Below, piece by piece: positions 6,617 through 26,070 of a stretch of 30,340 nucleotides of DNA. Under the pieces are notes generated by a model, which did no database searches, was not told the DNA's origin, and worked only from the letters and a program-made list of their open reading frames with translations. Source of the DNA: a virus; IMG/VR virus record IMGVR_UViG_3300028392_000220, positions 1 through 30,340 of that record; one strand, 5' to 3'. The translations under genes and the position numbers were made by a program. Position 1 is the first letter of the stretch. Each line of letters begins with the position of its first letter.

Positions 6617-9600
6617 ATGAATATAATAAGCGAAATCACTAAACCACTTGTTACGAAGACTGTCGTTATATACGCAGGTCGTTTTCAACCATTTCACAAA
6701 GGGCATTACGATGCTTATAAAAGACTTGTAAGTAAATTTGGACAAGATAGTGTATACATTGGCACTTCAAATGATACAAATGATTCTAAATCACCATTTA
6801 ATTTTAATGAAAAAAAGAAAATTGCTACAACTATGTTTGGCATCCCTTCTAATCATTTTGTACAAATAAGAAATCCATATAAACCAGTTGAAATATTGCA
6901 GCATTTCGATGGACAGACTACTCAATATATTGCTGCTGTTGGAGCAAAGGATGCGACACGTCTTCAAGGAAAATATTTCAAACCATATAACGGTAAGGCC
7001 GGTTATGGGTATAATGAGATAGGATATGTTTGGCCAGTACCAGCAGAATCAAATCCAATATCAGGAACAGATGTTCGTAATGGTCTTGGTGGCGATGAAG
7101 AAAGTGCTAAGAAGTTTTTCCTTAAAGCTTATCCAAAATTTAATAAACAAATATTTACAATGATTACTGATAAAATAAAATCATTGCATGAGGCAGCACC
7201 AATGGTTGGCGCTGGTGAGGCTGGAAGTTTTGGACTAAATCCAACTAGATATGATGATGATGATGTTACGGAAGATGGTTTTCCAGGTGGAGTGGGTGTA
7301 GGGCTTACATTACCCGGTGGATACATAAATGGTGCACCCAATCCAAAAGATGTAAAAAAATTAAGTAAAAAAATACATACTACGGATAGTAATAAAAAAT
7401 ATGTATATGACCCAATTAGTGAAATAATAGCTAACGCAGTCACAGAGGAAGCATTTAACGAATTTATAAGTAACTACTTAAATGAAGCTGAACCAAATAA
7501 AGCATTAGACCAGGATATTACATATAAAAATACAAAAGGTCAATCTAAAAAAATTAAAGCTAGAGATGCATTACGTTTACCAAAAGACCACCCTGCGCAT
7601 ATACAAGCTGCAAAAATAGCAGCTACTGCCGCACCAGCTGCTAAGACTGCCGGTAAACCGGATGTAAGTATACCTGGAAAGGTAGCAGGTTCTGTTGTTA
7701 AAAAGAGCGATGGTAAGCCTGATATAACAATTCCTGGTAAAGATGGTAAGCCAAAACAACAAGGTCCGCCGCCTCCACCACCAATGCCGCCAAAAAAATT
7801 AAGTGGAGCTGAATTAAAATCCAATGCTGAAATGGCACCTGGAGAAAAGGAAGCTTCTAAAAAGAATGACGAAATAAAAGCATCACTCGATCATGAAATG
7901 TCAAAACTATCAACTGATGATAAAAAATCGGTTGAAAGCGTAAATAACCCAGATTCTCCGGAAAGAAAGGATATGGCTGAAAAATCTAAAAGTTTTTTAT
8001 CAAAAGTTGGTAATAAATTATGGAGTGGCGCCAAACATTGGGCTAATGAGAAAAAAGAAATGTGTCAAGGAGTTGGTGCTGCAATAAAAACATTAGCTAC
8101 AGGCGGTAAACTTGGTAGTGTAAAGGATGCAAATGGTAAATATGTACACCATACGGATTTTAAAAATAAAACTGTACAAATCGACCCAAAGACAGCAAAG
8201 GAAAAAACAGTATGGGTAGATAAATCGGATTTAACGCCTGAAGAAAAGAAATTAAAACATAAATCCGAGCATGAGGAACATCACCAAAAGCATTCATTAA
8301 AACATGCTGCAAAAGATATTGCATTACTTGCCGCATCATTGGTTGCAGGAGCAGCTATTGGTGGAGCCGTTGGTGGTGGTATTGCTGCAGCAAAAGCTGG
8401 GGCTGCACACGGATTAGGACATGCGATTGGGCATGGCGCTGCGCATGGTGTAAGTGCAATTGCACACCACGGAGCAACAGGTATAGCCTCCCATGTTGGA
8501 AAGGATTTGATAAAACACTCTGCGTTTGAAGCTATGGGACTTAAAGGACACCACGCCGCTGGAGCAACTGCCGCAGTTGGTGCAATTGGTCATTTAATGG
8601 AAGGCGATGATAATAATGAGAATGATAATGATAAGAATGCAAAATTAGTGGATACATTACTAAAAAGGACTATGGAAGTAATGGCAACTTATAAAATGTC
8701 GGATGAGGAATTATTAAAATCTATTAAGAATTATAATAAAAATTCAGAAAAGAATACAGCAAAAGATATACTAAAAACAATTAATGAATCTGTAACATTA
8801 GAAAAAGCAAAGAATATACAAGATTTTGTTGATTACGCTTGTGAAAGACTTAAACTTAAAGATAAACCAAAAGTAAAATTATTATTAGATGGTGAATATT
8901 CCAATGCCGTATCTTCATTAGGTGGATATAGCCCGGTAACAAAAGATATATACGTTGTTGTGCCTGGTAGAATGACTGCCGATATATGTAGAACTATTGC
9001 ACATGAATTGGTACATAGAAAGCAAGATGAAATGGGGATGCTACGAACTGAAAATGATGGCGATACTGGTTCACCAATAGAAAATCAAGCAAACGCTGTA
9101 GCAGGAATACTATTAAGGGATTATGGTAAAAAGAATAAAGCAATTTATATGGAAAGCGTAAAATATATAAACGAAGTTAGCAACAATACTGGAGATGATG
9201 GTCAACCGGATGGTGGATATCTGCCAGCTGGGCACAGACGTACGCTTGGAGCAAATGATGGTGTGAATAAAGGTGATGATTGGTTTACCGGCGGAGGTTA
9301 CCTACAACTGGATTATCCAATAGCAGATGCAATATATGGTGCCGATGAAGAAAATATGTATACTGTAAAATATGTTGCTAGAAAATTAAGAAGGTCGATT
9401 GGTATAGATACTAAATTTGAAAAGAGTGAAGAAAAGGCAATAGATGTAACTCAAGACAAAAAAAATGGAAAATTAACAGATGAAACTAATAGTAAACGTA
9501 ATCTTACCGAAGTAAGTAAACGTGATATACATTTCAAAAATATATTCCAACATTATAGAGATGGCGATGCTAAAATGAAACAAAAAATAGCAGCAATAAT

Positions 9601-11665
9601 TACCGGAAATGCTTATGCAAAAATAAAAGAGATTCTAAAAGATATAATGGAAATGGGGCACAATGAGGTTGAAGAAATTGAAGACCAAATTGGAATATCA
9701 TTATCTGAAACTATTAAAAAAGTCGGTAGTAAATATATTGTATATCCAAAAAAAGGTGGTAAAAGATTAGGAACGCATAGCACATACAAATCGGCTAAAA
9801 AACAATTGGCAGCAATTGAAATTAATAAAGAAAGCTCAGAAGCTGATGGATATTATGGATCGGGAGCAAGCCGATGGGATGATGATACTCACTATAAAAA
9901 TGAAAATATTACTATCAATAATAAGCGTGCAAATACATTCCGCACAATTGAAGAAGCATTTGATAGTTTTTATGATAAAATGATTGAAGAAAATACATAT
10001 GAAATACCAACTATTAATGGTAAGCAAGCAATTACATTTAGAAAATTAGATGAAGCAAATGATATATTGGGCGCCATATCGCAAGATGGCGGCTCTACTA
10101 CCGTAAAAATGCCGTATTCAAAAAAATGGGAAGAATTTGATGATACGGCAGATAAATTATCAGATATTATTGGTTGGAAAAGATTACATCACCCAAGCGA
10201 TTCATATGAATATTATCGTAAAAATTTAGTAATCCCAACCTTTAATAGAAGTGAAGAAAATGGTAAAGGTAAACGTTGGATGCATCCAACTAAATCAAAA
10301 GAATATGCTGAGCATAAAAAAAGAACTTGGGAGGTTTGGCCATTTAATAATAGAGAAGAACCATACAATGAAGATCATGGTCAAGTTTATAAAATAAGAA
10401 GAAATGCATATGTTGAACCAACGATTATAAAATCAATAAAAGAAAATATAAATGAATCAAAACTTTTATTAGAAGGTGGAGCATATGGACACATGTCACA
10501 TCCATTTGATGATATGGATTTAACGTTTGGTGACCTTAAAAATATTATTAGTAAAGCATTAGATGGTGATTTAGGAGTAGTAAGAGAAAAAACCGATGGA
10601 CAGGCTTTGGCAATAAGTTGGAAAAACGGAAGATTGATTGCTGCAAGAAATAAAGGACATTTGCAAAACGCAGGAGCAAACGCAATGGGTATTGAAGAAG
10701 TTGCGGCTAAGTTTGCAGGACGTGGTGGACTAACAGATGCATACAACTTTGCAATGCGTGATTTATCTGCGGCAATTGCAGGATTGACAAAAGCTCAACG
10801 TGATAAAATATTCAATGAAGGCAAATGTTTTATGAATATTGAAGTAATATGGCCTACATCTGTAAATGTAATACCATATGGACAAGCATTATTAGTATTT
10901 CATAATACTACTTGCTATGATGTATCAGGTACAGCAATTAGTGGAGAGCAAACAACAGCAAGAATGTTGGCCGGAATGATTAAACAAATTAATGCAGATG
11001 TACAAAGTAAATACACAATACAAGGGCCACCAATTACCGAAATACCAAAGAATCAAAATTTAAGTTCTCTTAAACCAAAATATTTTTCAAAACTTTCTAA
11101 ATTACAAAATGAATTTGGATTAACCGATAATGATACTATTTCATTATATCATCAAAGTTGGTGGGAAAATTTTATAAATAAAAAAGCTCCAGTTAAGGTT
11201 GATAAAATGACAAAAGAAGCACTAGTTAGACGTTGGGCATTTGGTGATAAAACATTTAAGATTAATACAATATCAAACGCAGAATTGCAAAAATGGGCAT
11301 TAAATACTGATAAAGTTAATGTAGCAAAACAACAAAAAGATAATATCCGTCCATTTGAAGAAATATTTTTAGGAGTTGGAGCTGATATACTTTCATTTGT
11401 TGGGTCTGTATTAACTGTACATCCTGATAAGGCAATTCGTAATATGAAAGATAGATTAAAGGCAACCGCAGAACAAGTTAGAACCGCCGGAAGTCCTGCT
11501 CAAATACAAAAATTAAAAACCGAATTACAAAGATTAAATAATTTAGGCGGTATTGATAAGATAGTTGCATCCGAAGGATTGGTATTCTTTTATAATGGAA
11601 AAACTTATAAGCTTACTGGAACGTTTGCCCCGCTTAACCAAATTTTGGGAATTTTTTACGAATAA
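6617..11665 (+). CDS. 1682-aa multi-enzyme protein: NMNAT-like + zincin-like + nucleic-acid-ligase-like domains
   Basis: Domains in order. Residues 15-185 are an HxGH nucleotidylyltransferase of the NMNAT/NadM kind, with GRFQPFHKGH at 21-30 and ISGTDVR at 148-154. Residues 330-395 are Ala/Pro linkers with two GKPDxxIPGK repeats and a six-Pro run. Residues 545-660 are a Gly/Ala/His-rich, glycine-zipper-like segment. Residues 730-840 are a zincin-like peptidase with HELVH at 796-800 and ENQANAVA from 822 as a plausible third-ligand helix. Residues 1037-1070 are a small phage module (YPKKGGKRLGTH). Residues 1290-1682 resemble ATP-dependent DNA/RNA ligases: KTDG at 1325-1328 (motif I), ARNKG at 1343-1347, NIEVIWP at 1407-1413 (motif III), EGLVF at 1653-1657 (IV) and YKLTG at 1664-1668 (V). 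Sites fitting (L/I)xE|A/G occur after residues 192, 290, 662 and 1286, near domain borders. Its place among structural genes suggests virion cargo, which is inference. Confidence 0.75.
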   Translation: MNIISEITKPLVTKTVVIYAGRFQPFHKGHYDAYKRLVSKFGQDSVYIGTSNDTNDSKSPFNFNEKKKIATTMFGIPSNHFVQIRNPYKPVEILQHFDGQTTQYIAAVGAKDATRLQGKYFKPYNGKAGYGYNEIGYVWPVPAESNPISGTDVRNGLGGDEESAKKFFLKAYPKFNKQIFTMITDKIKSLHEAAPMVGAGEAGSFGLNPTRYDDDDVTEDGFPGGVGVGLTLPGGYINGAPNPKDVKKLSKKIHTTDSNKKYVYDPISEIIANAVTEEAFNEFISNYLNEAEPNKALDQDITYKNTKGQSKKIKARDALRLPKDHPAHIQAAKIAATAAPAAKTAGKPDVSIPGKVAGSVVKKSDGKPDITIPGKDGKPKQQGPPPPPPMPPKKLSGAELKSNAEMAPGEKEASKKNDEIKASLDHEMSKLSTDDKKSVESVNNPDSPERKDMAEKSKSFLSKVGNKLWSGAKHWANEKKEMCQGVGAAIKTLATGGKLGSVKDANGKYVHHTDFKNKTVQIDPKTAKEKTVWVDKSDLTPEEKKLKHKSEHEEHHQKHSLKHAAKDIALLAASLVAGAAIGGAVGGGIAAAKAGAAHGLGHAIGHGAAHGVSAIAHHGATGIASHVGKDLIKHSAFEAMGLKGHHAAGATAAVGAIGHLMEGDDNNENDNDKNAKLVDTLLKRTMEVMATYKMSDEELLKSIKNYNKNSEKNTAKDILKTINESVTLEKAKNIQDFVDYACERLKLKDKPKVKLLLDGEYSNAVSSLGGYSPVTKDIYVVVPGRMTADICRTIAHELVHRKQDEMGMLRTENDGDTGSPIENQANAVAGILLRDYGKKNKAIYMESVKYINEVSNNTGDDGQPDGGYLPAGHRRTLGANDGVNKGDDWFTGGGYLQLDYPIADAIYGADEENMYTVKYVARKLRRSIGIDTKFEKSEEKAIDVTQDKKNGKLTDETNSKRNLTEVSKRDIHFKNIFQHYRDGDAKMKQKIAAIITGNAYAKIKEILKDIMEMGHNEVEEIEDQIGISLSETIKKVGSKYIVYPKKGGKRLGTHSTYKSAKKQLAAIEINKESSEADGYYGSGASRWDDDTHYKNENITINNKRANTFRTIEEAFDSFYDKMIEENTYEIPTINGKQAITFRKLDEANDILGAISQDGGSTTVKMPYSKKWEEFDDTADKLSDIIGWKRLHHPSDSYEYYRKNLVIPTFNRSEENGKGKRWMHPTKSKEYAEHKKRTWEVWPFNNREEPYNEDHGQVYKIRRNAYVEPTIIKSIKENINESKLLLEGGAYGHMSHPFDDMDLTFGDLKNIISKALDGDLGVVREKTDGQALAISWKNGRLIAARNKGHLQNAGANAMGIEEVAAKFAGRGGLTDAYNFAMRDLSAAIAGLTKAQRDKIFNEGKCFMNIEVIWPTSVNVIPYGQALLVFHNTTCYDVSGTAISGEQTTARMLAGMIKQINADVQSKYTIQGPPITEIPKNQNLSSLKPKYFSKLSKLQNEFGLTDNDTISLYHQSWWENFINKKAPVKVDKMTKEALVRRWAFGDKTFKINTISNAELQKWALNTDKVNVAKQQKDNIRPFEEIFLGVGADILSFVGSVLTVHPDKAIRNMKDRLKATAEQVRTAGSPAQIQKLKTELQRLNNLGGIDKIVASEGLVFFYNGKTYKLTGTFAPLNQILGIFYE

Positions 11666-11672
11666 TTTGATA

Positions 11673-11682
11673 TATATTTAAA
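11673..11682 (+). promoter_or_regulatory. Late-promoter-like motif (TATATTTAAA, degenerate)
   Basis: A degenerate copy of the recurrent TATATTTATA motif in the 38-base gap after the multi-domain gene, 21 bases before the ATG at 11704. It is weaker than the exact copies elsewhere in the window. Confidence 0.35.
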
Positions 11683-11703
11683 ACAGTTATAAAAACATAT
11701 AGT

Positions 11704-12369
11704 ATGGCAAAAAGAACTAGCTTTGACCAAAAAGCAAAAGGAGTACACAAATCTCGTCAAAAAATAATTGATACGGTATTTGGTAGGGAAAATAATACAC
11801 AACACACTTTTGGATATGAAGGTGAAATTGAGCCTGATAAAAAAGTTGGTGATATTTGGACTGATAAAGATGGTAAAACTTGGGAGCAAAAGGATGGATA
11901 CAAAATATCAGTAACTAAGTTTGATGAAATACGTGAATATCTTAAGAAAATAACAACTTGTTCAAATCAAGATTGTAAAACCGATACATACATGCATACC
12001 GATAAAAAGCTAATAGCTAAAACAGGAATGTGTGTAGATTGTTTACAAAAATATGAAGAAGGATTAAAACTCGATGGAACATGGCCTTACTATGAGGATT
12101 ATAAAATATCAAAAAATAAATTAAGTACGGTAAGAGAGTATAAAGAACAATACGAACAGGCACTAAAAGATTTATCAACTAAATTACAAATGGTAAATGA
12201 AGATGGTACTATAAGTGAATGGAAATGGGATATTGATATTAATCAGGTTAGAAATGATATTGAAAACGATATAAATGGCGCAATTAATGCAATCGCACTT
12301 TTATTAGAAAGAATTGCATTGCTTGAAGAAAAGTTTATAGAATTAGGACATTCGGAATTAATAAAATAA
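11704..12369 (+). CDS. Unknown phage protein with a four-Cys zinc-ribbon-like motif
   Basis: A 221-residue soluble protein. The N-terminus is basic (MAKRTSFDQKAKGVHKSRQK). A short beta-type unit follows (GDIWTDKDGKTWEQKDGY). Four cysteines, C86, C91, C110 and C113, form a CxxxxC-n18-CxxC pattern that could bind zinc. The C-terminal third is predicted helical and ends in a heptad-like stretch (LLLERIALLEEKFIELG). It lies four bases before the first of two membrane proteins and three genes before the terminase, so a packaging or assembly role is possible. The small terminase subunit often sits near here in T4-like phages, but I see no specific motif for it. Function is not known to me. Confidence 0.6.
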   Translation: MAKRTSFDQKAKGVHKSRQKIIDTVFGRENNTQHTFGYEGEIEPDKKVGDIWTDKDGKTWEQKDGYKISVTKFDEIREYLKKITTCSNQDCKTDTYMHTDKKLIAKTGMCVDCLQKYEEGLKLDGTWPYYEDYKISKNKLSTVREYKEQYEQALKDLSTKLQMVNEDGTISEWKWDIDINQVRNDIENDINGAINAIALLLERIALLEEKFIELGHSELIK

Positions 12370-12373
12370 AAAT

Positions 12374-13275: not shown

Positions 13276-13282
13276 GATAAAA

Positions 13283-14928: not shown

Positions 14929-16116
14929 ATGATAAAGCTAAGAGATATGCTAAATAAAGTAGGTGGGCCCACACCAAAACCACATTCTTCTACGCAAACA
15001 CAAAATGAAGATTTAAACAAATGGTTTAAAGAAAAATGGGTAAATATAGGAAAAAAAGTAAATGGTAAACATCCACCATGTGGCACTTCCGGTAAAAAAA
15101 GTGGTTATGCAAAATGTGTTCCTGCAGCTAAAGCAGCTGGAATGAGTAAAAAAGAAAAGGAAAGTGCCACTAGAAGAAAACGAGCAGCACAAAACGCAGC
15201 AGATAGAGGTGGTAAGAATAGTAATGGACAAGGAAAGACTCCGATATATGTTTCTACTAAAACAAAAAATGAAGGATGGAGTCAAAAATATAAAAATAGT
15301 ATAAATTGTAATAATCCAAAAGGTTTCTCTCAAAAAGCACATTGCAAAGGAAAGAAAAAAAATGAAACTATGAATATTGAAGAAAGACTAAACCTCTTTT
15401 TAGAGAAGAATTGCCCAACTGATAAAGCAAAGTGGGCAGCATCTAAGGTAGCAGCTAAATCTAAATTCGATGTATACCCGTCAGCATACGCAAATGGATG
15501 GGCAGCAAAGAACTATAAAGGTAAAGGCGGTGGTTGGCGAAGTTGTAGTGAATCCGTAGTAAATGAAGATTGTTGGGATGGATATAAAAATGTAGGTGGA
15601 AAAATGAAAAATGGTAAAATGGTGCCAAATTGTGTTCCTATAAATGAAGAAACCGCTGAACTTAATTGCGATGAAAACGGAAATTGTTGGGAATTAGAAC
15701 CACCAAGATATCCAAGCGATTCAATGGCAAATAGAACTATGGAAGAAGAAATCGATGAATATGATGTAGAAACCATAGAAGAAGAAAAATCTTTTATAAA
15801 ATTTATGAGAGAATATAATCAATTACTATCTGAAGCAACTTGCCCATGTTTATTGGAAGCTGAGTATCAAGGACGTAACGTAAAGCTTGGTAAAATAATG
15901 CAAGGAGATATTAAAAAATTCAAAGTATATGTTAAGAACGATAAAGGAAATGTTGTTAAAGTAAATTTTGGATTTGGTGGTAGTTCGGCCGGCGGAAAAA
16001 GAATGGTAATTAAGAAAAATAATCCTGCAAGAAGAAAATCATTTAGAGCAAGAATGAATTGTGATAGTCCCGGTCCAAGATGGAAAGCAAGATATTGGGC
16101 ATGTCGTACTTGGTAA
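14929..16116 (+). CDS. Mosaic of basic Cys-containing phage modules (DUF5872-like), likely capsid cargo
   Basis: A 395-residue, Lys-rich protein made of separate short modules I recognise from other T4-like phages. They are: a DUF5872-like unit at about 28-113 (KWFKEKWVNIGKK...CGTSGKKSGYAKC); NCNNPKGFSQKAHCKG at 126-141; CPTDKAKW...DVYPSAYANGWAAKNY at 162-196; DCWDGYKNVGGKMKNGK at 214-230; and a very basic C-terminal unit at 325-395 (ARRKSFRARMNC, PRWKARYWACRTW). Before the last unit lie two fits to the prohead-protease pattern, LSE302|A303 and LLE310|A311, preceded by a hydrophobic helix (FIKFMREYNQLL). Charge and processing sites suggest DNA-associated internal head peptides released by cleavage. 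The names of the modules are from memory; packaging and cleavage are inference. Confidence 0.7.
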   Translation: MIKLRDMLNKVGGPTPKPHSSTQTQNEDLNKWFKEKWVNIGKKVNGKHPPCGTSGKKSGYAKCVPAAKAAGMSKKEKESATRRKRAAQNAADRGGKNSNGQGKTPIYVSTKTKNEGWSQKYKNSINCNNPKGFSQKAHCKGKKKNETMNIEERLNLFLEKNCPTDKAKWAASKVAAKSKFDVYPSAYANGWAAKNYKGKGGGWRSCSESVVNEDCWDGYKNVGGKMKNGKMVPNCVPINEETAELNCDENGNCWELEPPRYPSDSMANRTMEEEIDEYDVETIEEEKSFIKFMREYNQLLSEATCPCLLEAEYQGRNVKLGKIMQGDIKKFKVYVKNDKGNVVKVNFGFGGSSAGGKRMVIKKNNPARRKSFRARMNCDSPGPRWKARYWACRTW

Positions 16117-18881: not shown

Positions 18882-18888
18882 ATAAGAT

Positions 18889-19134
18889 ATGACAAATTTT
18901 AGAACAAGTAATGCAGCTACATACACTACCGGTCAATCGGGATCATTACAAAATGCTTGGGGTATATTAGCAACAACAGGCTCTGCCGGAGTTCTAACAT
19001 TAGACGGAGGAAATCCTACACTAAGAGGCGCATACGCAACTATGAGTATAGCACATGTAGCTACTGGGTTTCCGTTTCCATGCTATGTAAGAAGTGTATC
19101 GGTAACAGCAGGAACTGTATATGTTTTAGCATAA
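18889..19134 (+). CDS. Small beta-type structural protein (possible head decoration)
   Basis: An 81-residue protein rich in Thr, Ala, Gly and Ser, with alternating hydrophobic residues and almost no charge (for example STAGS-type turns, SVSVTAGTVYVLA at the end). It has no signal peptide or membrane helix. It sits within the head gene cluster between an unknown helical protein and the DUF3008-like gene, with gaps of 7 and 21 bases. Its size, composition and place would suit a capsid decoration or cement protein, but there is no diagnostic motif and this is a guess. Confidence 0.55.
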   Translation: MTNFRTSNAATYTTGQSGSLQNAWGILATTGSAGVLTLDGGNPTLRGAYATMSIAHVATGFPFPCYVRSVSVTAGTVYVLA

Positions 19135-19155
19135 TAAAAATAAAATCAATTAACT

Positions 19156-19740
19156 ATGCCAGCGGTAAGTAAATCACAACAAAAATTAATGGGAATTGTA
19201 CATGCTATCCAAAAAGGAGAAGCAAACCCAAAAGATTTCAGCAAAGGAGCACAAGATATGGCTAAAAATATGAAAAAATCCGATGTTAAAGATTTTGCAT
19301 CAACAAAGCAAAAAGGACTTCCTGATAAAAAAGAAAATACGGATAAACTAAAAGAGTATATTCGTAAAATGGTTAGAGAAATGGGTACAACGGGTGCGGT
19401 TGATGGATATAATACACCATTTGCATTTGGCAAACGTGGCAATGAAAAAGCAAAAGCTAAAAAGCAAGCCGATTTGACTGGGTATACTCCAGTAAATGAA
19501 AATCGTTGGTTAGAACTAAAAAAAGAAGATAGTCCAGCTAACGCCAAAATAAACAAAGGTATCTCAAACATAAATAAACAACTTGCTGAAATGGAAAAGT
19601 TTATGGATTGGTATGGTAGATTGAAGCAAGAGAGTGGTGTTACGAATGAAACTTTTTGGAAAGCAACAAATCGTAACATTTATACGATTAAAGAAAGATT
19701 AGTGAGGCTTGAGCAGAAAATTCGTAAAATATCTGAATAA
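19156..19740 (+). CDS. DUF3008-like modular head-region protein
   Basis: A 194-residue basic protein of three modules. Residues 1-60 are DUF3008-like (MPAVSKSQQKLMGIVHAIQK ... SDVKDFASTKQKGLP). Residues about 75-110 carry a hydrophobic helix (LKEYIRKMVREMG) and the phage module GAVDGYNTPFAFG. Residues 115-194 begin with NRWLELKKED and continue as a helical unit (ISNINKQLAEMEKFMDWYGR ... NIYTIKERLVRLEQKI). These pieces recur in different orders in related phages, as far as I recall, which suggests shuffled virion cargo. Its stop overlaps the next start by one base (TAATG), implying coupled translation. Function is unknown. Confidence 0.7.
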   Translation: MPAVSKSQQKLMGIVHAIQKGEANPKDFSKGAQDMAKNMKKSDVKDFASTKQKGLPDKKENTDKLKEYIRKMVREMGTTGAVDGYNTPFAFGKRGNEKAKAKKQADLTGYTPVNENRWLELKKEDSPANAKINKGISNINKQLAEMEKFMDWYGRLKQESGVTNETFWKATNRNIYTIKERLVRLEQKIRKISE

Positions 19741-20357
19741 TGAATTTAACGGAATTAGAAAATATTGTTGAGGAAATTGTAAGAGAAGAGATGGAGTATC
19801 AACAGCTCTTCAAAGCCATGCTAAAGGCAACTGGTAAAAATATTCCTACAATGAGTGATACGGAGAAGAAGAAGTTTTTTAATGCCGTAGATAAAGCATA
19901 TAAAGCTAAGACAGAAGGTAGGCTAACTGGGTATAAAGAAAATATGGATGAAGGTTTCATATCCGGATTAATATCATTAATGACAGTGGCAATAATTGGT
20001 AAAGTAATTTTTTACTATTTTATACAATTAGTAGATAAGGGTATGAAATACTTTTCTTCTGATGATAAAAAATTAGAAGTAGTTGTTAAGAAAATATTAA
20101 AAGAGTTATCGGATAATAAATCGTTCATAGATGATGTTACCAATATGATTAATAAAAACAAAGGAATTGATCAAGTAACAGCCAACAAGATTTTAAAAAT
20201 GGGATATACTCAAGACCTAATTAAGAAATATACCGCAAAGGGTGATATTGATAAGAACAAACTTGAGAATGAATTAAAAACCATATTTTTTAAATCTTGG
20301 GAAGATTCAAATGTTGTATCAACAATAACCGATAAAATTAAAAATGATATTAAATAA
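19740..20357 (+). CDS. Head-region protein with FKAML...FFNAVDKAY module and a membrane segment
   Basis: A 205-residue protein. Residues 1-18 form an acidic amphipathic helix (MNLTELENIVEEIVREEM). Residues 19-60 are a small module widespread in phage proteins (YQQLFKAMLKATGK ... SDTEKKKFFNAVDKAY). Residues about 73-98 (GFISGLISLMTVAIIGKVIF and on) are hydrophobic enough to cross or insert into a membrane. The remainder is a Lys-rich helical domain. A membrane segment in a head-cluster protein next to the prohead protease suggests either an ejected protein acting on the host membrane or a membrane-linked assembly factor. It is coupled to both neighbours by one-base TAATG overlaps. Confidence 0.65.
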   Translation: MNLTELENIVEEIVREEMEYQQLFKAMLKATGKNIPTMSDTEKKKFFNAVDKAYKAKTEGRLTGYKENMDEGFISGLISLMTVAIIGKVIFYYFIQLVDKGMKYFSSDDKKLEVVVKKILKELSDNKSFIDDVTNMINKNKGIDQVTANKILKMGYTQDLIKKYTAKGDIDKNKLENELKTIFFKSWEDSNVVSTITDKIKNDIK

Positions 20358-20947
20358 TGAATAAAGGACTCTTAATAGAAACACATTTATTTGAAGCAAA
20401 AATACAAGAGGAAGATAATGGAACTTTCCTTGTTAAAGGTATCCTACAAAGAGCTGGAGCCCCAAATCAAAATAAACGTAGATATCCAAAGGAAATTCTT
20501 AAAAGAGAATGTGATAAGTATCAACAACTTATTAAAGAAAGACGTGCTTTGGGAGAACTTGACCATCCAGATTCACCTGTAATCAATCTTAAAAATGTTT
20601 CACATAATATTAGAGAAATCTATTGGGAAGGCGATGATGTATGTGGTGTAGTAGAAATATTATCAACACCATCTGGAAATATACTAAGAGAACTTCTAAA
20701 AAATAATATTCGTTTAGGAATTAGTAGTAGAGGTTTGGGTTCTGTAAAAGAAATGAACGATGGAACGGTTATGGTTCAGGAAGATTTTGAAATTATAGGT
20801 TGGGATTTCGTTTCAAACCCATCAACGCATGGTGCATTTATGGCGCCAATGAATGAAAGTAAGCAATGGCAGAAAATCGCAGATGAATGTGGTAAATGGT
20901 GTCGCTCACATGACTTAATGCGAGAAATTCTTATCGAATTAAATTAA
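20357..20947 (+). CDS. 21: Prohead maturation protease (gp21-like)
   Basis: A serine protease of the herpesvirus-assemblin/HK97-protease fold that degrades the scaffold and trims capsid proteins before DNA packaging. The 196 residues compare with 212 in T4. Visible family features are KGILQRAGAPNQNKRRYPKE at 27-46, the catalytic His in GELDHPDSP (H70), the catalytic Ser in RLGISSRGLGS (S123 or S124), and IIGWDFVSNPSTHGAFM at 147-163 with D150 a candidate third residue. The N-terminus holds LFE13|A14, a match to its own LxE cleavage pattern, so self-processing is likely. It overlaps the preceding gene by one base and stands among its predicted substrates. Confidence 0.92.
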   Translation: MNKGLLIETHLFEAKIQEEDNGTFLVKGILQRAGAPNQNKRRYPKEILKRECDKYQQLIKERRALGELDHPDSPVINLKNVSHNIREIYWEGDDVCGVVEILSTPSGNILRELLKNNIRLGISSRGLGSVKEMNDGTVMVQEDFEIIGWDFVSNPSTHGAFMAPMNESKQWQKIADECGKWCRSHDLMREILIELN

Positions 20948-20951
20948 TTAA

Positions 20952-20961
20952 TATATTTATA
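20952..20961 (+). promoter_or_regulatory. Late-promoter-like motif TATATTTATA (exact)
   Basis: An exact copy in the 29-base gap after the prohead protease gene, ending 15 bases before the ATG at 20977. It begins five bases after the TAA stop, so little else can be encoded there. Confidence 0.55.
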
Positions 20962-20976
20962 CAAAACAATAATAAA

Positions 20977-21342
20977 ATGAAAAAAACAATTTTACAAGAA
21001 GTTAAAGCAATAAACAAAATTGCAGGAACTAAAATTACAAAGCAACAAGAGATTGCATTAATTAAGGAAAGACTTCAAAACTTAAATGAGGCAACAGGAC
21101 CATATTACTCGACAGGATATGAAGCAGGTGGTAATGGCAAGACCGGTAAGTTGGATAAAACAACACCAGAAGGAAAATATATAGCTGCTAAAATAAATCA
21201 ACTATATACATTGATAAATGATAAAAAATTACTTGATTTTACCGAAGGATATGTAAAATCAATGGCAACATCGGTACTAAGATTCGATGGAATAAATAGT
21301 GTTCCAAAAGTATTATTACAAATAAGAGAGAAAAATAAATAA
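20977..21342 (+). CDS. Small unknown head-region protein with capsid-targeting-like N-terminus
   Basis: A 121-residue protein. Residues 1-38 are a Lys/Ile/Leu-rich helix ending in LQNLNE38|A39, which fits the gp21 cleavage pattern and resembles the short N-terminal capsid-targeting peptides of T4 internal proteins. After the site comes a Gly/Tyr-rich stretch (TGPYYSTGYEAGGNGKTGK) and a basic helical C-terminus. It lies directly downstream of the protease gene and four bases before the next gene. The family is not known to me. That it is packaged and trimmed is inference from the motif and its position. Confidence 0.6.
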   Translation: MKKTILQEVKAINKIAGTKITKQQEIALIKERLQNLNEATGPYYSTGYEAGGNGKTGKLDKTTPEGKYIAAKINQLYTLINDKKLLDFTEGYVKSMATSVLRFDGINSVPKVLLQIREKNK

Positions 21343-21346
21343 ATAA

Positions 21347-22033
21347 ATGGCAAAATTAATAAATCTAATACCCGCTAATCAAAAATCACAACAAAAATTA
21401 GCAGAATCTTTTGAAGATCCATTAGAAGGATTTCCTAAAGAGTATAAAGAATTACTTAAAAAACTCCAAAGAAGTAATGATCCAGCTGAAAGAACAATGT
21501 TGATAAATAAGATGAATGTTATTAGAAAAAACATCAAACTTAAACCATTAACAAATGAAGCTTTGGAAGATATGGAAGTATCTTTGCCGTCTACTATGGA
21601 AAGATTTTTGAATAAAACCATTGATATAATTAAATCTTATAAGCTTCCTAGAAAAAAAGAACAACTTGTAATAGCAAAGATGGTCGATGCATTAGGAATG
21701 AGTCCAAATGAATTAACTCAAGTTGTATCTAAATTAAAAAAATACGATATTGTTCATAAGGAAGATATTGAAAACAATGACCACAATTATATGGGTGAAA
21801 CCGTTAATAAATCTACAATAAAAGATTTTCTTAAAGATTTTAACAATAATCCTGATATTTTATCATCAGGGGCTCGTGAAGCAAATGGATATATTACTAT
21901 ATATTTAGATGGCAAAGATGTGCATGATGAATTTCTAGCAACACTTAAATTAGCAAAAACTAAGTATAAAGATAAACTAAAAAGAATTAACTCTGGAGCT
22001 GAAGATATATTGAAGTTTAAAGTTATAAAGTAA
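21347..22033 (+). CDS. Unknown helical head-region protein
   Basis: A 228-residue, Lys/Glu/Leu-rich protein with no signal peptide or membrane segment. The N-terminal segment contains LAE20|S21, a possible maturation-protease site. The middle has heptad-like helices (YKELLKKLQR, LPRKKEQLVIAKMVDALG). The last 60 residues include GYITIYLDGKDVHDEFLATL, a small alpha/beta unit. Its start follows the preceding stop by four bases and no promoter motif separates them. I do not recognise the family. Confidence 0.6.
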   Translation: MAKLINLIPANQKSQQKLAESFEDPLEGFPKEYKELLKKLQRSNDPAERTMLINKMNVIRKNIKLKPLTNEALEDMEVSLPSTMERFLNKTIDIIKSYKLPRKKEQLVIAKMVDALGMSPNELTQVVSKLKKYDIVHKEDIENNDHNYMGETVNKSTIKDFLKDFNNNPDILSSGAREANGYITIYLDGKDVHDEFLATLKLAKTKYKDKLKRINSGAEDILKFKVIK

Positions 22034-22097
22034 TCATTTGGTAGTAAGAATTAGATGATTTAATTAAAAACCACTTGGATACTAAAAAAGATAAATA

Positions 22098-22586
22098 ATG
22101 ATACGTTTAAAAGATATACTAAAAGAAACCGAAGAATACCAACAAATGCCAAAAGAATTAAAAAAGCATTTTTTGGAAATTATATCTACATATGGGCATC
22201 ATAGAGAGGGTATGAATCGAAAATCGGATATTCGTAGTATAGCAGAGACACTGGGTGCAATCGCTGATGCGGCTCAGGAGTACACTCTACATGAAGCAGG
22301 TGATTGGTTTGATAGGGTTACAATTAAACGTAATATGGGCGAGCTAAAGAACTTACAAAAGAAATTTGAGAAAGAGGCAATTGAAGCAAAAAGCCAAGAG
22401 GAAAGACTTGAGGCACTTTACGAAGATATGGGACATGTTTTAGGACGTTACTTTGAAATCGCAGAAATAAGTGAGCAAGAAATGCAACAAAGACTTGGAC
22501 TTAAAGGTAATCAGAGTAAAATTGATATGAATAAGAACGGAAAGATTGACTCACAAGATTTTAAAATATTGAGAAAACAAAAATAA
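22098..22586 (+). CDS. Helical head-region protein with C-terminal EF-hand-like calcium loop
   Basis: A 162-residue protein. The start (MIRLKDILKETEEYQQM) is an amphipathic helix like those on other cargo-like proteins here. Residues 25-122 match a helical phage module I recognise without a function (GMNRKSDIRSIAETLGAIAD, ERLEALYEDMGHVLGRYFEI). Residues 143-154 (DMNKNGKIDSQD) form a complete EF-hand loop, with D143, N145, N147, K149 (main-chain), D151 and D154 at positions 1, 3, 5, 7, 9 and 12, followed by FKILRKQK as in dockerin-type repeats. A single loop may bind Ca2+ only on pairing. The 64-base gap upstream has no TATATTTATA motif and no gene. Confidence 0.65.
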   Translation: MIRLKDILKETEEYQQMPKELKKHFLEIISTYGHHREGMNRKSDIRSIAETLGAIADAAQEYTLHEAGDWFDRVTIKRNMGELKNLQKKFEKEAIEAKSQEERLEALYEDMGHVLGRYFEIAEISEQEMQQRLGLKGNQSKIDMNKNGKIDSQDFKILRKQK

Positions 22587-22591
22587 ATAAA

Positions 22592-22963
22592 ATGGAACAA
22601 TTAGCATCATTATTTTTTCACAGCAGAACACAAGCGCATGTATTCCACTTAGGAGTTAAAGGACCTGGAGCATATGCAGCACATGTGGCATTACAAGCGT
22701 ACTATGACGAAATAATAGGATTAGTAGATGGATTAGTAGAATCGTATCAGGGCAAATACGGACTTATTAAATTTCAACCAGTTAATGGTTTAGATACTAA
22801 TTGTGATATTGAAAATATAATTAAGTATTTTGAAAAATTATGTGGAGCACTTGAAAAGATAAGAACCGATAAAAAATTACAAGATACTTGGATTCAAAAT
22901 CAAATAGACAACATTTCGGAATTATTATATTCAACAAAATATAAGTTAGTAAATTTACAATAA
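22592..22963 (+). CDS. Ferritin/Dps-like protein (DUF5856-like) with intact ferroxidase ligand spacing
   Basis: A 123-residue helical protein whose first half reads HSRTQAHVFHLGVKGPG, then AAHVALQAYYDE and GLVDGLVE. The residues H19, H31, D46 and E50 are separated by 12, 15 and 4 positions, the same spacing as the ferroxidase ligands of Dps (H31, H43, D58, E62 in Listeria Dps). The G-x-x-x-x-x-H and Y-D-E context also matches. Dps proteins oxidise Fe(II) with peroxide and shield DNA. This one is short (Dps is about 150-170 residues), so the fourth helix may be reduced. It follows the EF-hand protein by five bases and precedes a terminator and the scaffold gene. The family number is from memory; the metal-site match is read directly. 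Confidence 0.7.
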   Translation: MEQLASLFFHSRTQAHVFHLGVKGPGAYAAHVALQAYYDEIIGLVDGLVESYQGKYGLIKFQPVNGLDTNCDIENIIKYFEKLCGALEKIRTDKKLQDTWIQNQIDNISELLYSTKYKLVNLQ

Positions 22964-22980
22964 GATACACCCTACATATA

Positions 22981-23030
22981 AATTAAAAGCTTAGAAATAA
23001 TACCAATTTTTAAGCTTTTAATTTATTTTT
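22981..23030 (+). terminator. Long AT-rich stem-loop followed by a T-run
   Basis: Arms 22981-22997 and 23007-23023 pair over 17 positions (one G-U), with a perfect core AAAAGCTTA/TAAGCTTTT and a nine-base loop. TTTATTTTTTTAT follows. It lies 17 bases after the Dps-like gene and would end the head-cargo transcript before the scaffold and capsid genes. Confidence 0.7.
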
Positions 23031-23031
23031 T

Positions 23032-23043
23032 TATATATATTAT
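23032..23043 (+). promoter_or_regulatory. Degenerate late-promoter-like element (TATATATATTAT)
   Basis: An AT-rich element directly after the terminator T-run, resembling the TATATTTATA motif and its flanking T-run at other copies. It is the only candidate of this kind in the gap before the scaffold and capsid genes, which must be strongly expressed. The match is poor and it lies about 147 bases from the ATG. Confidence 0.25.
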
Positions 23044-23048
23044 CAAAT

Positions 23049-23077
23049 ATCCCATCTCATATGGGATTATATTTTTT
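23049..23077 (+). other. Perfect hairpin ATCCCAT-loop-ATGGGAT with T-run
   Basis: Arms 23049-23055 and 23061-23067 pair perfectly over seven bases around a CTCAT loop, followed by TATATTTTTT. This could be a second intrinsic terminator in tandem with the one at 22981. If the element at 23032 is a promoter, it would instead be a protective 5' hairpin on the scaffold/capsid messenger. Confidence 0.5.
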
Positions 23078-23189
23078 AGACATAGTTGATTAATGAATAC
23101 CCTTCCCTATAAGGTGTGACCGAACAATCAACATAATTACATTGGAGTTCCTACACTAATAACTTCACAAACAAATTTAAGTAAAAAAA
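23078..23189 (+). other. Structured untranslated leader of the scaffold/capsid unit
   Basis: A 112-base non-coding stretch less AT-rich than other gaps here. GTTGATT (23085-23091) can pair with AATCAAC (23126-23132), enclosing CCTT (23101-23104) and AAGG (23111-23114). I see no ORF, tRNA or known riboswitch. It ends in an A-rich leader (TAAGTAAAAAAA) before the ATG at 23190. The length is unusual, since most gaps here are under 50 bases. Confidence 0.4.
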
Positions 23190-24413
23190 ATGGCAAATTC
23201 AAAATTATTGAAAGAAGCAATCGCTGATGCCAAAGCCGTTAAAGAAACTGCTTTAGCAAACGCAAAACTCGCTCTTGAAGAAGCATTTACTCCAAGACTA
23301 CAATCTATCTTATCTCAAAAGATGAGACAAGAAGCAGAAATGGAAGATGATGACACTGAACAAGTAGATGAGGAATTAGATTCATCTGACATTGGAACAA
23401 AGGTAGGTCAAGACAAAGCTGATACTCCTGCAAAACAACCAACATTAGATGCTGATACTGAATTAGCACCGGGTATGAAAAAATCCACTGCTAAAAGAGG
23501 TCTTGAAGATCCAAACAGAACAATCGTAGACACTCTCATGGAAGATGAAATGGGAATGGAAGATGAAAAGGATCAAGAAATCGCTGAATTACGTGCTCGT
23601 TTAGCAGAGCTTGAAGGAGATGATGAAACTCCTGAAGGCGATGAAAATTATGGCATGGAAGATGAAGGCGATGATATGGGTATGGATTCTGACGAAGACG
23701 GTGAAGATTATGATGTTACCGGCGACGAAGATGAGGATACCGAAGAAGATGACATGGACTTAGAATCTATCATTCGTGAATTAGAAGCTCAACTTGGAGA
23801 CGAGGAAGGCGATAAAGAAGAAGAAGATGAAAGTTCAATGTATGAGGATTATGCAGACGGTTCTGATGCCGGAACTGATAAATCCGAAGATCCTAAAGTA
23901 GTAACAAACGAAGATGAAGAAGAAAAGGATGATGTAATCGACTTAGAAGAAATTCTTCGTGAAATGGAAGCTGACTTAAAAGATGAAGAGGAAATGAAAA
24001 ACCCAGCTGAAGCTGAAAAAGATGGAGCTCTTACAGCTGAGTTAAAACAAGCTTACAGCACAATCAAATCGTTACAAGGAACAATCAATGAAGTTAATTT
24101 ACTTAACGCTAAATTATTGTTCGCAAACAAATTATTCAGAGCACATAACATGACTAACGAACAAAAAGTTAAAGTTATCGAAACTTTGGATAGAACAAAA
24201 TCGGTTAGAGAAGTTAAATTGGTTTACTCTACATTAGCAGAGAATTTCAAATATGTACCATCTAACAAAACTGTTAAAAAAGCAATCTCTGAAGGATTCG
24301 CAGCTAGCAAAATAGTTAAATCAACTAAACCAGCTGTAGCACAAAAACAAGTAATAAATGAAAGTGCTGTGATTTCTGATAGATTTAAAAAATTAGCAGG
24401 TATTATTAAATAA
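23190..24413 (+). CDS. 22: Prohead core scaffold protein (gp22-like)
   Basis: The internal core around which the capsid shell assembles and which gp21 then digests. It has 407 residues (269 in T4). An N-terminal Ala-rich helix contains LKE9|A10 and LEE31|A32, plausible cleavage sites. The centre (about 50-275) is strongly acidic, with runs of Asp/Glu and two related units, MDLESIIRELEAQL from 189 and IDLEEILREMEADL from 250. The conserved scaffold segment is near 300-350 (NLLNAKLLFANKLFRAHN, VREVKLVYSTLAENF), and the end is SDRFKKLAGIIK. Directly upstream of the capsid gene (22 bases), as in T4. It uses more C-ending codons than its neighbours, suggesting high expression. Confidence 0.88.
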   Translation: MANSKLLKEAIADAKAVKETALANAKLALEEAFTPRLQSILSQKMRQEAEMEDDDTEQVDEELDSSDIGTKVGQDKADTPAKQPTLDADTELAPGMKKSTAKRGLEDPNRTIVDTLMEDEMGMEDEKDQEIAELRARLAELEGDDETPEGDENYGMEDEGDDMGMDSDEDGEDYDVTGDEDEDTEEDDMDLESIIRELEAQLGDEEGDKEEEDESSMYEDYADGSDAGTDKSEDPKVVTNEDEEEKDDVIDLEEILREMEADLKDEEEMKNPAEAEKDGALTAELKQAYSTIKSLQGTINEVNLLNAKLLFANKLFRAHNMTNEQKVKVIETLDRTKSVREVKLVYSTLAENFKYVPSNKTVKKAISEGFAASKIVKSTKPAVAQKQVINESAVISDRFKKLAGIIK

Positions 24414-24435
24414 TCAAAATAAAAATTAAATTAAA

Positions 24436-26070
24436 ATGAACTTAACAAAATTAATGACAGGTGCTAACCCACAAAGCATTATGCTTGAACAAACTAGAGG
24501 TTTGAAAGCAAAGTGGGAAAGAACTGGTTTACTTGAAGGAGTAGGCGCAGAATCAACTAAGCATGGTATGGCAGTAATGCTTGAAAACCAAGCTAAACAA
24601 TTACTTGATGAGGCTACCCGTACAGGTACAGCAGCAGGTTCAGAAGAATGGGCAGGTGTAGCTCTTCCGTTAGTAAGACGTATCTTTGGTAGCATTGCTG
24701 CAAAAGAGTTCGTTTCAGTACAACCGATGAACTTACCTTCTGGTCTTATTTTCTATATGGATTTCAAATATAGTACAGCAACAGCACAAAACCAACCAGC
24801 TTCTGGTTCTTCTTTGTATGGTGCAGGCGGTGCATTTGGACAAGATTCATTAAACGCATCTGGTAACAAACTTGGATCAACACAAGATACAACTGGTGGT
24901 TTATATGGAGCTGGTCGTTTTGGATATACTGTTAATGACCAAACTACAACAGGTATTACGGCTACATTATTGACTGCATCTTTAGCAGATATTGCGTTTG
25001 ATTTAACAAACACAACTTTATCTTCTTCTGTAGCAGCAGGTACGGCTAGAAAAATGACTGTATTAACAAGTACTTTAACTAATCCAGACCTTAATGCTGT
25101 TAGAACATTCTCAATATCTGGTTCAGGTACAAACTTTGCATACTATCCGCAGTTTACCGCAACTAGTGGTTCAGGCGCTGGTACGGCTATCGTTTTCCTT
25201 GCAACAGGTGTAACTGCAACTGGTACGCAAACTGTAGGTGTATCTTTCAATGCACAACCTACCGCTGCAAACCGTGGTGATTTTGAAGATAGAACAGGCG
25301 CTGATATTGTTATTCCAGAAATTGAATTGGAATTAAAATCAGAACCAATCGTTGCTAAAACTCGTAAGTTAAAAGCAATTTGGACTCCTGAACTTGCACA
25401 AGATTTGAACGCATATCACTCAATTGACGCTGAAGCTGAATTAACTCAAATGTTAAGTGAGTACATCTCTTTGGAAATCGACTTAGAAATCCTTGAAATG
25501 TTACAATTAAACGCTTTAACAGTTGATTATTGGTCTGCTCGTGTTGGATACGATTACAACTCTTCTACCACCTCTTTCGCAGTTGATACTAACGCAGTTC
25601 AAGCATCGGCTTATAACAAATCAACATGGTTCCAGACTTTGGGTATTAAATTACAAAAAGTTTCTAACAAAATTCACCAATTAACAATGCGTGGTGGAGC
25701 AAACTTCATAGTTGCATCTCCAAACGTATGTACAATTCTTGAATCAATGAACGGATTTGCATCTAACCCTGGTAAAGATGCTCTTCAATTCGCAGCAGGT
25801 GTATCACAAATTGGTGCAATCTCTAATCGTTTTGATGTTTATAAGAACCCGTATATGACGGAAAACGTTATCTTATTAGGCTTTAAAGGAAGTAACTTCT
25901 TTGAAACAGGTGCTGTATATGCTCCATATGTTCCATTGATTATGACTCCTTTAGTGTACGACCCAACTAACTTCACTCCTAGACGTGGAGTTATGACTCG
26001 TTACGCTAAGAAGATAGTTAGACCCGAATTTTACGGTAAAATCGTAATCGAAGGTTTGAACACTCTTTAA
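24436..26070 (+). CDS. 23: Major capsid protein (gp23-like)
   Basis: The HK97-fold shell subunit, 544 residues (521 in T4 gp23). Family landmarks are an N-terminal KAKWERTGLLEGVG (compare KWKPLLEGEG in T4), PLVRRIFGSIAAKEFVSVQP, then MNLPSGLIFYMDFKYS, RKLKAIWTPELAQDLNAYHS, DAEAELTQMLSEYISLEIDL, GGANFIVASPNV and a C-terminal GVMTRYAKKIVRPEFYGKI. Residues about 150-270 hold a Thr/Ser/Gly-rich insertion-domain-like stretch. LDE59|A60 matches the T4 maturation site (E65|A66) in position and sequence, so the mature protein probably begins at A60; LLE34|G35 is another possible cut. A-rich leader, no Shine-Dalgarno. A strong terminator follows the gene. Confidence 0.95.
   Translation: MNLTKLMTGANPQSIMLEQTRGLKAKWERTGLLEGVGAESTKHGMAVMLENQAKQLLDEATRTGTAAGSEEWAGVALPLVRRIFGSIAAKEFVSVQPMNLPSGLIFYMDFKYSTATAQNQPASGSSLYGAGGAFGQDSLNASGNKLGSTQDTTGGLYGAGRFGYTVNDQTTTGITATLLTASLADIAFDLTNTTLSSSVAAGTARKMTVLTSTLTNPDLNAVRTFSISGSGTNFAYYPQFTATSGSGAGTAIVFLATGVTATGTQTVGVSFNAQPTAANRGDFEDRTGADIVIPEIELELKSEPIVAKTRKLKAIWTPELAQDLNAYHSIDAEAELTQMLSEYISLEIDLEILEMLQLNALTVDYWSARVGYDYNSSTTSFAVDTNAVQASAYNKSTWFQTLGIKLQKVSNKIHQLTMRGGANFIVASPNVCTILESMNGFASNPGKDALQFAAGVSQIGAISNRFDVYKNPYMTENVILLGFKGSNFFETGAVYAPYVPLIMTPLVYDPTNFTPRRGVMTRYAKKIVRPEFYGKIVIEGLNTL

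What the first reader, a model, noticed from the sequence alone, without database searches (positions are those of the whole stretch)
6617..26070. Prohead-protease cleavage patterns recur at module borders across the head cluster
Seen: (L/I)xE before A or G at E192, E290, E662 and E1286 of the 1682-aa protein; E302 and E310 of the mosaic protein at 14929; E38 at 20977; E13 of the protease itself; E9 and E31 of the scaffold; E59 of the capsid protein. Several follow hydrophobic helices like the T4 capsid-targeting peptide (for example EEAFNEFISNYLNE|A). The terminase shows none by eye. Known: T4 gp21 cuts at (L/I)xE. Inference: cargo targeting tags lie inside polyproteins, not only at N-termini.
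Basis: partly seen in the sequence, partly recalled or inferred. Interest (0 to 1): 0.75.

Follow-up and report, generated by a model that had tools for sequence, protein, structure and literature searches.

The report
Protease-cut cargo polyproteins in phage head
This T4-like phage appears to make enzymes it carries in its head as long chained proteins with cutting points for the phage's own head-assembly protease between the parts, so that several enzymes could be loaded together, cut apart inside the head and injected into the next host cell.

Summary
All 11 named (L/I)xE|A/G sites exist at the stated residues. In the head cluster [LI]xE[AGS] occurs about twice as often as shuffling predicts (24 vs 11.2; the other genes 5 vs 7.4), while decoy motifs are not enriched. 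The same holds in the head regions of two related phages and not in the rest of those genomes. A two-fold excess means about half of all such sites are chance, so sites must be judged singly. Those at module borders pass best. In 16 homologs of the 1682-aa protein the motif is three-fold enriched outside, and three-fold depleted inside, the two conserved enzyme modules. E302 and E310 of the mosaic protein keep a hydrophobic P3 and P1 Glu in 64/64 unique homologs while P2 varies. Most telling: modules behind internal sites also exist as separate proteins; in phages with the T4-type protease these usually carry a short N-terminal peptide ending in [LI]xE, while in phages without it one module starts exactly at the predicted cut in 8 of 9 cases examined. 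Cutting of cargo polyproteins by the gp21 homolog is therefore likely. That internal helices also target cargo is inference. E1113 and E1146 are probably chance. No virion peptides were available.

The parts
6617..11665 (+). 1682-aa cargo polyprotein: nucleotidyltransferase, variable middle, zincin-like module, ligase-like module
   Evidence: Pfam CTP_transf_like E 4e-07 at residues 18-155; homologs keep first and last module and differ in the middle
6656..7177 (+). nucleotidyltransferase module (residues 14-187)
   Evidence: phrog_395 'cytidyltransferase' E 1e-08; [LI]xE[AGS] depleted inside this and the ligase module together
7190..7192 (+). predicted cut E192, LHE|A
   Evidence: Glu in 7 of 8 distinct aligned homologs, [LIVMF]xE in 7, strict [LI]xE[AGS] in 2
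7484..7486 (+). predicted cut E290, LNE|A
   Evidence: Glu in 5 of 5 distinct homologs, P3 L or F in most, strict motif 0 of 5
8303..8599 (+). Gly/Ala/His-rich hydrophobic stretch ending at E662
   Evidence: read from translation; membrane activity is inference
8600..8602 (+). predicted cut E662, LME|G
   Evidence: Glu 6 of 6, strict motif 5 of 6 distinct homologs
   Evidence: Glu and [LIVMF]xE 5 of 5, strict 1 of 5; lies near the N-terminal LRE|S of the standalone zincin of Synechococcus phage B23
8789..9226 (+). zincin-like metallopeptidase module, HELVH at residues 796-800
   Evidence: motif; standalone homologs in phages B23 and S-SRM01; no Pfam match
9641..9853 (+). module matching phrog_3684
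   Evidence: E 4.1e-11, residues 1009-1079
9953..9955 (+). E1113 motif match, judged chance
   Evidence: Glu in 1 of 2 aligned homologs, strict 0 of 2
10052..10054 (+). E1146 motif match, judged chance
   Evidence: Glu in 1 of 2 aligned homologs, strict 0 of 2
10454..10456 (+). E1280, INE|S, upstream member of a tandem pair before the ligase module
   Evidence: Glu 7 of 15 distinct homologs, strict 4
10472..10474 (+). predicted cut E1286, LLE|G, directly before the ligase module
   Evidence: Glu and strict motif 11 of 13 distinct aligned homologs; by eye in 13 of 16 homologs counting the window, two have Cys there
10475..11662 (+). ligase-like module (residues 1287-1682), K-x-D-G at 1325
   Evidence: motif; the model of homolog L016 matches RNA ligases as top Foldseek hits but only at E 5e-3 to 2e-2; stands alone in LR756500 (L004)
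14929..16116 (+). 395-aa mosaic cargo protein
   Evidence: DUF5872 E 1.7e-06; 80 of 505 IMG/VR relatives fetched
15565..15567 (+). E213 border before the CWxGY module (VNE|D)
   Evidence: Glu 61 of 64, P3 L or V in 62 of 64, P2 variable; standalone CWxGY proteins start with tags such as MKLINLIPLKE
15793..15834 (+). internal helix FIKFMREYNQLLSE ending at predicted cut E302
   Evidence: P3 Leu 64/64, P1 Glu 64/64, P2 N/S/A/D/K, P7 Tyr 64/64
15832..15834 (+). predicted cut E302, LSE|A
   Evidence: site in 77 of 80 aligned sequences
15856..15858 (+). predicted cut E310, LLE|A
   Evidence: P1 Glu 64/64, P1' A 62 or S 2, P3 V/L/M, P2 free
15859..16113 (+). YQGR module (residues 311-395)
   Evidence: standalone in phages lacking the S77 protease, starting at the predicted cut
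19378..19380 (+). V-x-E border between DUF3008 and TGAVxGY modules (weak: P3 Val, P1' Met)
   Evidence: DUF3008 E 2.1e-09; 29 of 45 homologs have this module start within 60 aa of the N-terminus
20357..20947 (+). prohead protease, gp21/S77 family
   Evidence: Peptidase_S77 E 8.8e-30, phrog_207 E 7.1e-53
20393..20395 (+). protease self-site E13, LFE|A
   Evidence: 34 of 34 near relatives; not aligned in distant ones, where an LxE lies elsewhere in the N-terminus
21088..21090 (+). E38 of the 121-aa protein, LNE|A: untested
   Evidence: no homolog found
23190..24413 (+). scaffold-like protein with sites E9, E31, E368, E391
   Evidence: strict sites in 54, 56, 54 and 33 of 56 relatives; P2 at E368 is S/T/K/A/Q/R
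24436..26070 (+). major capsid protein (gp23) with E34 and maturation-type site E59
   Evidence: Gp23 E 5e-76; E59 strict 68 of 68, E34 Glu 68 of 68

Best explanation
The 1682-aa and 395-aa proteins are head-cargo polyproteins. A short N-terminal peptide, and helices between modules, probably hold the chain in the scaffold core; when the prohead is complete, the phage's gp21-type (S77) serine protease cuts after (L/I/V/M)-x-E, releasing the modules (nucleotidyltransferase, zincin, RNA-ligase-like enzyme, small basic modules) inside the head. They would then enter the next host with the DNA. Shown: motif enrichment, border location, conservation, protease gene, module swapping. Inferred: actual cleavage, targeting by the internal helices, ejection.
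For: Enrichment specific to [LI]xE[AGS] in head regions of three phages (24/11.2, 20/10.9, 36/17.1) and absent elsewhere (5/7.4, 88/81.2, 79/77.9), decoys not consistently enriched; outside vs inside the two enzyme modules 54/17.4 vs 4/12.0 in 16 homologs; N-terminal [LI]xE within 24 aa in 16/16 of these homologs vs 90/372 background ORFs; P3 and P1 fixed with P2 free at E302, E310 and scaffold E368; S77 protease in the window; standalone ligase, zincin, CWxGY and YQGR modules with N-terminal tags ending in LxE; YQGR module without tag in 8 of 9 phages lacking S77, with [LIVM]xE directly before it in 4 of 4 phages having S77; sites E200, E218 and E433 of a homolog fall in low-confidence interdomain stretches of its model; a cytidylyltransferase is a virion protein of cyanophage S-SM1 (PMC3037559, passages) and an NMNAT plus the DUF5872-like and DUF3008 proteins of S-SCSM1 are virion proteins (PMC9602691, passages; record annotation).
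Against: No proteomics of this phage. A two-fold enrichment means about half of all sites are chance. Homologs are related, so counts are not independent. Two homologs (L018, L020) have Cys in place of the pre-ligase Glu, and L003 lacks the site there. The standalone zincin of S-SRM01 has no LxE tag although that phage has S77. CRP-6 has no S77 match yet carries LEE|D before the module, fused to another domain. The decoy [LI]xxE[AGS] is also raised outside the modules (31 vs 17.7), partly because LLLE counts in both. In the window only 1 of 14 head ORFs shows the T4-type tag register.
Confidence: 0.8

Rival explanations
1. Only scaffold, capsid and protease are cut; the [LI]xE matches in the cargo are conserved for structural reasons (helix ends, linkers) or are chance.
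For: MCP E436, 290-aa E80/E190 and 162-aa E66 are conserved and look like fold residues; gp46-like E623 and the immuto and Mel-JY01 terminases carry the motif in a Walker-B-like VIDE/LIDE.
Against: Decoys not consistently enriched; depletion inside and enrichment outside modules; free P2 at borders; tag absent in most phages without S77.
Confidence: 0.12
2. The embedded zincin cuts the polyprotein itself, as proposed for metallopeptidase domains of polyvalent proteins (PMC5512222, passages).
For: HELVH zincin-like module inside the protein.
Against: By BLAST the zincin region is seen only in the closer homologs; L016, L018-L020, L023, L024 and L002 align only over the first and last modules, yet most keep the LxE borders.
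Confidence: 0.04
3. Internal sites are release cuts only; targeting is done by the N-terminal peptide alone, and internal helices are just linkers.
For: T4 targeting residues lie in the first 10 residues of IPIII (PMC9026906, passages); all 16 polyprotein homologs have an N-terminal LxE peptide.
Against: At least 41 of 64 unique mosaic homologs begin M-x-E|DL, too short for a helix, yet all 64 match the internal helix pattern ending in L-x-E (first-residue counts); standalone modules carry the tag themselves.
Confidence: 0.4

Closest known systems
T4 gp21 processing and capsid targeting sequences (IPIII, Alt)
   Same: S77 protease, L/I-x-E cut, short N-terminal hydrophobic peptide; Alt shows a second cut at its other end (PMC9026906, passages)
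   Different: T4 internal proteins described there are single cargo units trimmed at their ends; here cut sites lie between several enzyme-like modules of one chain
Giant phage head processing (phiKZ gp175, SPN3US gp245)
   Same: multiple cuts after x-x-Glu per protein, internal head proteins (PMC10052503, PMC5694885, passages)
   Different: motif is S/A-x-E in phiKZ (PMC9026906), and all SPN3US products except the protease lose N-terminal propeptides; release of several modules from one chain is not described in the passages read
Polyvalent proteins of phages
   Same: several unrelated enzyme domains in one predicted injected polypeptide; analogy with polyproteins (PMC5512222, passages)
   Different: there release is attributed to embedded metallopeptidases; here to a separate prohead protease
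Cyanophage virion cytidylyltransferase / NMNAT
   Same: a related kind of nucleotidyltransferase is a virion protein; the S-SRM01 cytidyltransferase starts with a T4-like tag ending ITE|A
   Different: the papers' passages mention no processing or fusion to a ligase module

Membership tests
T4 gp21 (S77) protease system | S77 prohead protease encoded in the head cluster | tested here: met
   PF03420 E 8.8e-30
T4 gp21 (S77) protease system | L/I-x-E sites in capsid, scaffold and protease | tested here: met
   MCP E59 68/68, scaffold E9/E31/E368 54-56 of 56, protease E13 34/34
T4 gp21 (S77) protease system | cleavage observed at these sites | not testable with these tools
   no virion peptides
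T4-type capsid targeting sequence | about 10-residue N-terminal peptide, hydrophobic at positions 4 and 7, L/I at 8, E at 10 | tested here: inconclusive
   1 of 14 window head ORFs (shuffle mean 0.3); 3 of 20 Mel-JY01; 8 of 20 immuto vs 10 of 178 other immuto ORFs
T4-type capsid targeting sequence | peptide suffices to bring cargo into the head | not testable with these tools
   needs an experiment
Polyvalent proteins | several unrelated domains in one polypeptide | tested here: met
Polyvalent proteins | match to a described polyvalent domain family | tested here: not met
   only CTP_transf_like in the 1682-aa protein in Pfam at E 0.01; ligase and zincin pieces match nothing
Giant-phage (phiKZ/SPN3US) processing | S/A-x-E type cut motif | not tested
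   only L/I/V/M/F P3 variants were counted

The most novel reading that the evidence does not exclude
T4-like phages of this clade and of related marine groups use a Gag-Pol-like logic: multi-enzyme cargo polyproteins with interchangeable modules, each led by its own targeting-plus-cleavage peptide, so that a captured enzyme becomes head cargo wherever it is fused; the packaged set (nucleotidyltransferase of the NMN/PPAT type, RNA-ligase-like enzyme, zincin) acts at once on entry, perhaps against NAD- and tRNA-directed defences.
Probability: 0.4. Interest if true: 0.82.

Novelty: new variant of a known kind. Interest (0 to 1): 0.63.

Why it matters
Protein cargo of phage heads is hard to recognise from sequence. 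A border motif that marks cargo, gives module edges and predicts mature N-termini would let one list the injected proteins of very many uncultured T4-like phages, and would show that head proteases, like those of RNA viruses, mature multi-enzyme polyproteins. It also offers natural multi-cargo loading signals.

Tried and rejected
A strict aromatic tag pattern ([FYW]xx[FYW][LIVM]xE) is not enriched in any of the three head regions (1 vs 0.5, 1 vs 0.9, 1 vs 1.1), so I do not use it as statistics. The T4-type N-terminal register is rare in the window itself (1 of 14).

Sites judged chance or structural: E1113, E1146 (not conserved), MCP E436, 290-aa E80/E190, Dps-like E50, 162-aa E66 (conserved 40/40 but with nearly fixed P2). 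Scaffold E368 looked unconserved against distant scaffolds (0 of 2 aligned) but is kept in 54 of 56 near ones. Scaffold column 287 is a site in 54 of 56 relatives but the window has Gln there.

In the MCP neighbourhoods (80 of at least 598 relatives) the [LI]x[QN][AGS] decoy is also raised in the first 40 residues of upstream ORFs (7.6 vs 3.5), so the N-terminal excess there (6.8 vs 2.5) is weak evidence; over whole proteins the motif stands out (1.97 against decoys of 0.91-1.35; downstream ORFs 1.12).

Structure models: mosaic protein pLDDT 44, not usable; L016 pLDDT 60, Foldseek no hit below 1e-3, so 'RNA-ligase-like' is a lead only. A PDB sequence search with the ligase module found nothing.

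Rows dropped: one search used 16 homologs, leaving out L008 (nearly the window), L011, L012, L014 (5'-cut), L017, L021, L025 (duplicates) and L027 (partial). The YQGR comparison examined 13 of the 24 records, the others being mostly near-duplicates. The Fisher value (0.0083) was computed before CRP-3 (no tag) and CRP-6 (N-terminal LEE) were read and before Melnitz (MME|S) was counted. One search used too narrow a pattern (4 rows) and is not relied on. One search counted 'MNE' as a tag because Met was allowed at P3; the figure of at least 41 tag-less forms comes from its list of first residues (only the 20 commonest starts were printed).
Full report
What is there. The window is 30,340 bases of a T4-like phage; the record is a virus record of that length. 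Its head cluster holds terminase, portal, S77 prohead protease, a scaffold-like protein and gp23, with a 1682-aa protein upstream and a 395-aa mosaic protein between terminase and portal. Among annotated phages the closest capsid proteins are those of Microcystis phage Mel-JY01 (52%), the uncultured phage LR756508 (50%) and Flavobacterium phage immuto (48%).

Check of the observation. All 11 named sites are exact. [LI]xE[AG] occurs 17 times in the 14 head ORFs against 7.8 expected, and 3 times in the 13 others against 4.4. With [AGS] and decoys: window head 24/11.2, Mel-JY01 head region (20 ORFs) 20/10.9, immuto head region (20 ORFs) 36/17.1; remaining ORFs 5/7.4 (13 ORFs), 88/81.2 (194) and 79/77.9 (178). 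Changing P1 to D, K or Q/N, changing P3 to V/M/F, shifting the spacing or reversing the motif gives no consistent excess in head regions (the reversed motif reaches 1.57 in Mel-JY01). So the signal is specific, but it is two-fold: about half of the individual matches must be chance.

Which sites are real. In 16 homologs of the 1682-aa protein the first module (nucleotidyltransferase) and the last (ligase-like) are shared while the middle varies widely; only LR756500 (L004) has the ligase module alone. [LI]xE[AGS] is found 4 times inside these two modules (12.0 expected) and 54 times outside (17.4 expected); P1 decoys outside are 0.39-0.69. All 16 have [LI]xE within the first 24 residues, against 90 of 372 background ORFs of Mel-JY01 and immuto. 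Directly before the ligase module 13 of 16 have [LI]xE|G by eye; L018 and L020 have Cys, L003 has none there. In the mosaic protein (64 unique sequences from the 80 aligned) E302 keeps P3 Leu 64/64, P1 Glu 64/64, with P2 N26 S22 A13 D2 K1; E310 keeps P1 Glu 64/64, P1' A62 S2, P3 V/L/M, P2 anything; a third border, E213, keeps Glu in 61/64. Fixed P3 and P1 with a free P2 is what the known gp21 specificity would select. Scaffold E368 shows the same over 56 relatives. E1113 and E1146 are not conserved; E38 has no homolog to test; MCP E436 and the sites in the 290-aa protein look like fold residues.

Modules with and without the tag. (a) The ligase module stands alone in LR756500 behind an 18-residue peptide ending LILE|GGSYGH, matching LLLE1286|GGAYGH. 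(b) The zincin stands alone in Synechococcus phage B23 as MNYKQFLRE|S..., near the window's internal INE724|S; its other standalone homolog (S-SRM01) has no such tag. (c) The CWxGY module behind E213 stands near the N-terminus in 12 of 85 homologs, mostly behind MKLINLIPLKE-like tags. (d) The YQGR module behind E310 stands in phage C48C1 behind MKKFKQYIDE|G...LTE|AEYQG, in HTVC008M behind LEE|AEFQG and in immuto behind LDE|GEYRG; in phage Melnitz it is fused behind MME|SEYQG in a protein that also holds nucleotidyltransferase-like and CWxGY-like modules by my reading. In phages with no S77 match the same module starts with Met-Ala at the place of the predicted cut (MAKYQGR, MAKYKGR and similar) in 8 of 9 examined; the ninth, CRP-6, has an N-terminal extension with LEE|D and a second domain. 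S77 was found in C48C1, HTVC008M, immuto and Melnitz and not in the nine. So the border LxE goes with the protease, not with the module. This is the strongest single argument, with the limits that the nine are related marine phages and that absence rests on one profile.

Link to virions. Passages of PMC3037559 report a cytidylyltransferase in the S-SM1 virion (the paper writes S-SM1); passages of PMC9602691 report 45 virion proteins of S-SCSM1 by mass spectrometry, including an NMNAT, and its record marks the DUF5872-like (SSCSM1_29) and DUF3008 (SSCSM1_93) homologs of window modules as virion proteins. The S-SRM01 cytidyltransferase begins MKNFHQFITE|A, hydrophobic at 4, 7, 8 and Glu at 10, the positions that passages of PMC9026906 give for T4 IPIII targeting and processing. 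That the window's nucleotidyltransferase is orthologous to these is inferred from phrog_395 (E 1e-08), not tested by a tree.

Structure. The model of homolog L016 (829 aa, pLDDT 60) puts E200 and E218 at helix ends within the low-confidence stretch 182-376 and E433 in the low-confidence loop 418-443; its N-terminal helix 3-14 ends at the LISE Glu. Foldseek lists archaeal RNA ligases and T4 Rnl1 first (E 5e-3 to 2e-2) and PPAT/NadM-type adenylyltransferases next: leads only.

Mechanism. Likely: a cargo chain is recruited to the scaffold core by its N-terminal peptide and perhaps by internal helices, then cut after (L/I/V/M)-x-E by the gp21 homolog during head maturation. Cleavage and border role: about 0.8. 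Internal helices as targeting tags: about 0.5. Function of the released enzymes (NAD or tRNA repair on entry): speculation.

Known or new. L/I-x-E cleavage, capsid targeting sequences, multi-site processing in giant phages and multidomain injected proteins are all known (passages only). I found no paper describing prohead-protease release of several enzyme modules from one cargo chain, in searches and 90 of an open-access library that lacks most subscription papers. I therefore rate it a new variant of a known kind.

Noticed in passing
26166-26723: A 185-aa protein read as a GIY-YIG-type endonuclease (my label, no family scan) directly behind the capsid gene; only 1 ORF in the 80 MCP loci matches it best, suggesting a recent insertion.
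   Followed up: no
22592-22963: DUF5856 / phrog_858 ('starvation-inducible', Dps-like) protein inside the head cluster.
   Followed up: no
L121:1201-1410: DUF3008 virion protein of S-SCSM1 ends in KKRTFKEFLEYIE, a tag-like helix at the C-terminus; in the window the DUF3008 module is followed by a similar helix and then another module.
   Followed up: partly
L033:7087-9810: 907-aa immuto protein with another module order (N-terminal unknown region, nucleotidyltransferase directly after LAE|A at residue 286, zincin about 634-678).
   Followed up: partly
L218:545-1234: Roseobacter phage CRP-6 gp55: YQGR-like module fused to a second domain that I read, from recall only, as XkdF-like protease.
   Followed up: no
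8303-8599: Gly/Ala/His-rich hydrophobic stretch of the polyprotein just before E662; could be membrane-active on release.
   Followed up: no
24048-24050: Scaffold column equal to residue 287 is an LxE|A site in 54 of 56 relatives but Gln in the window.
   Followed up: no
L002:22183-22410: Mel-JY01 carries a gene annotated as ribosomal protein S21 inside its head cluster.
   Followed up: no
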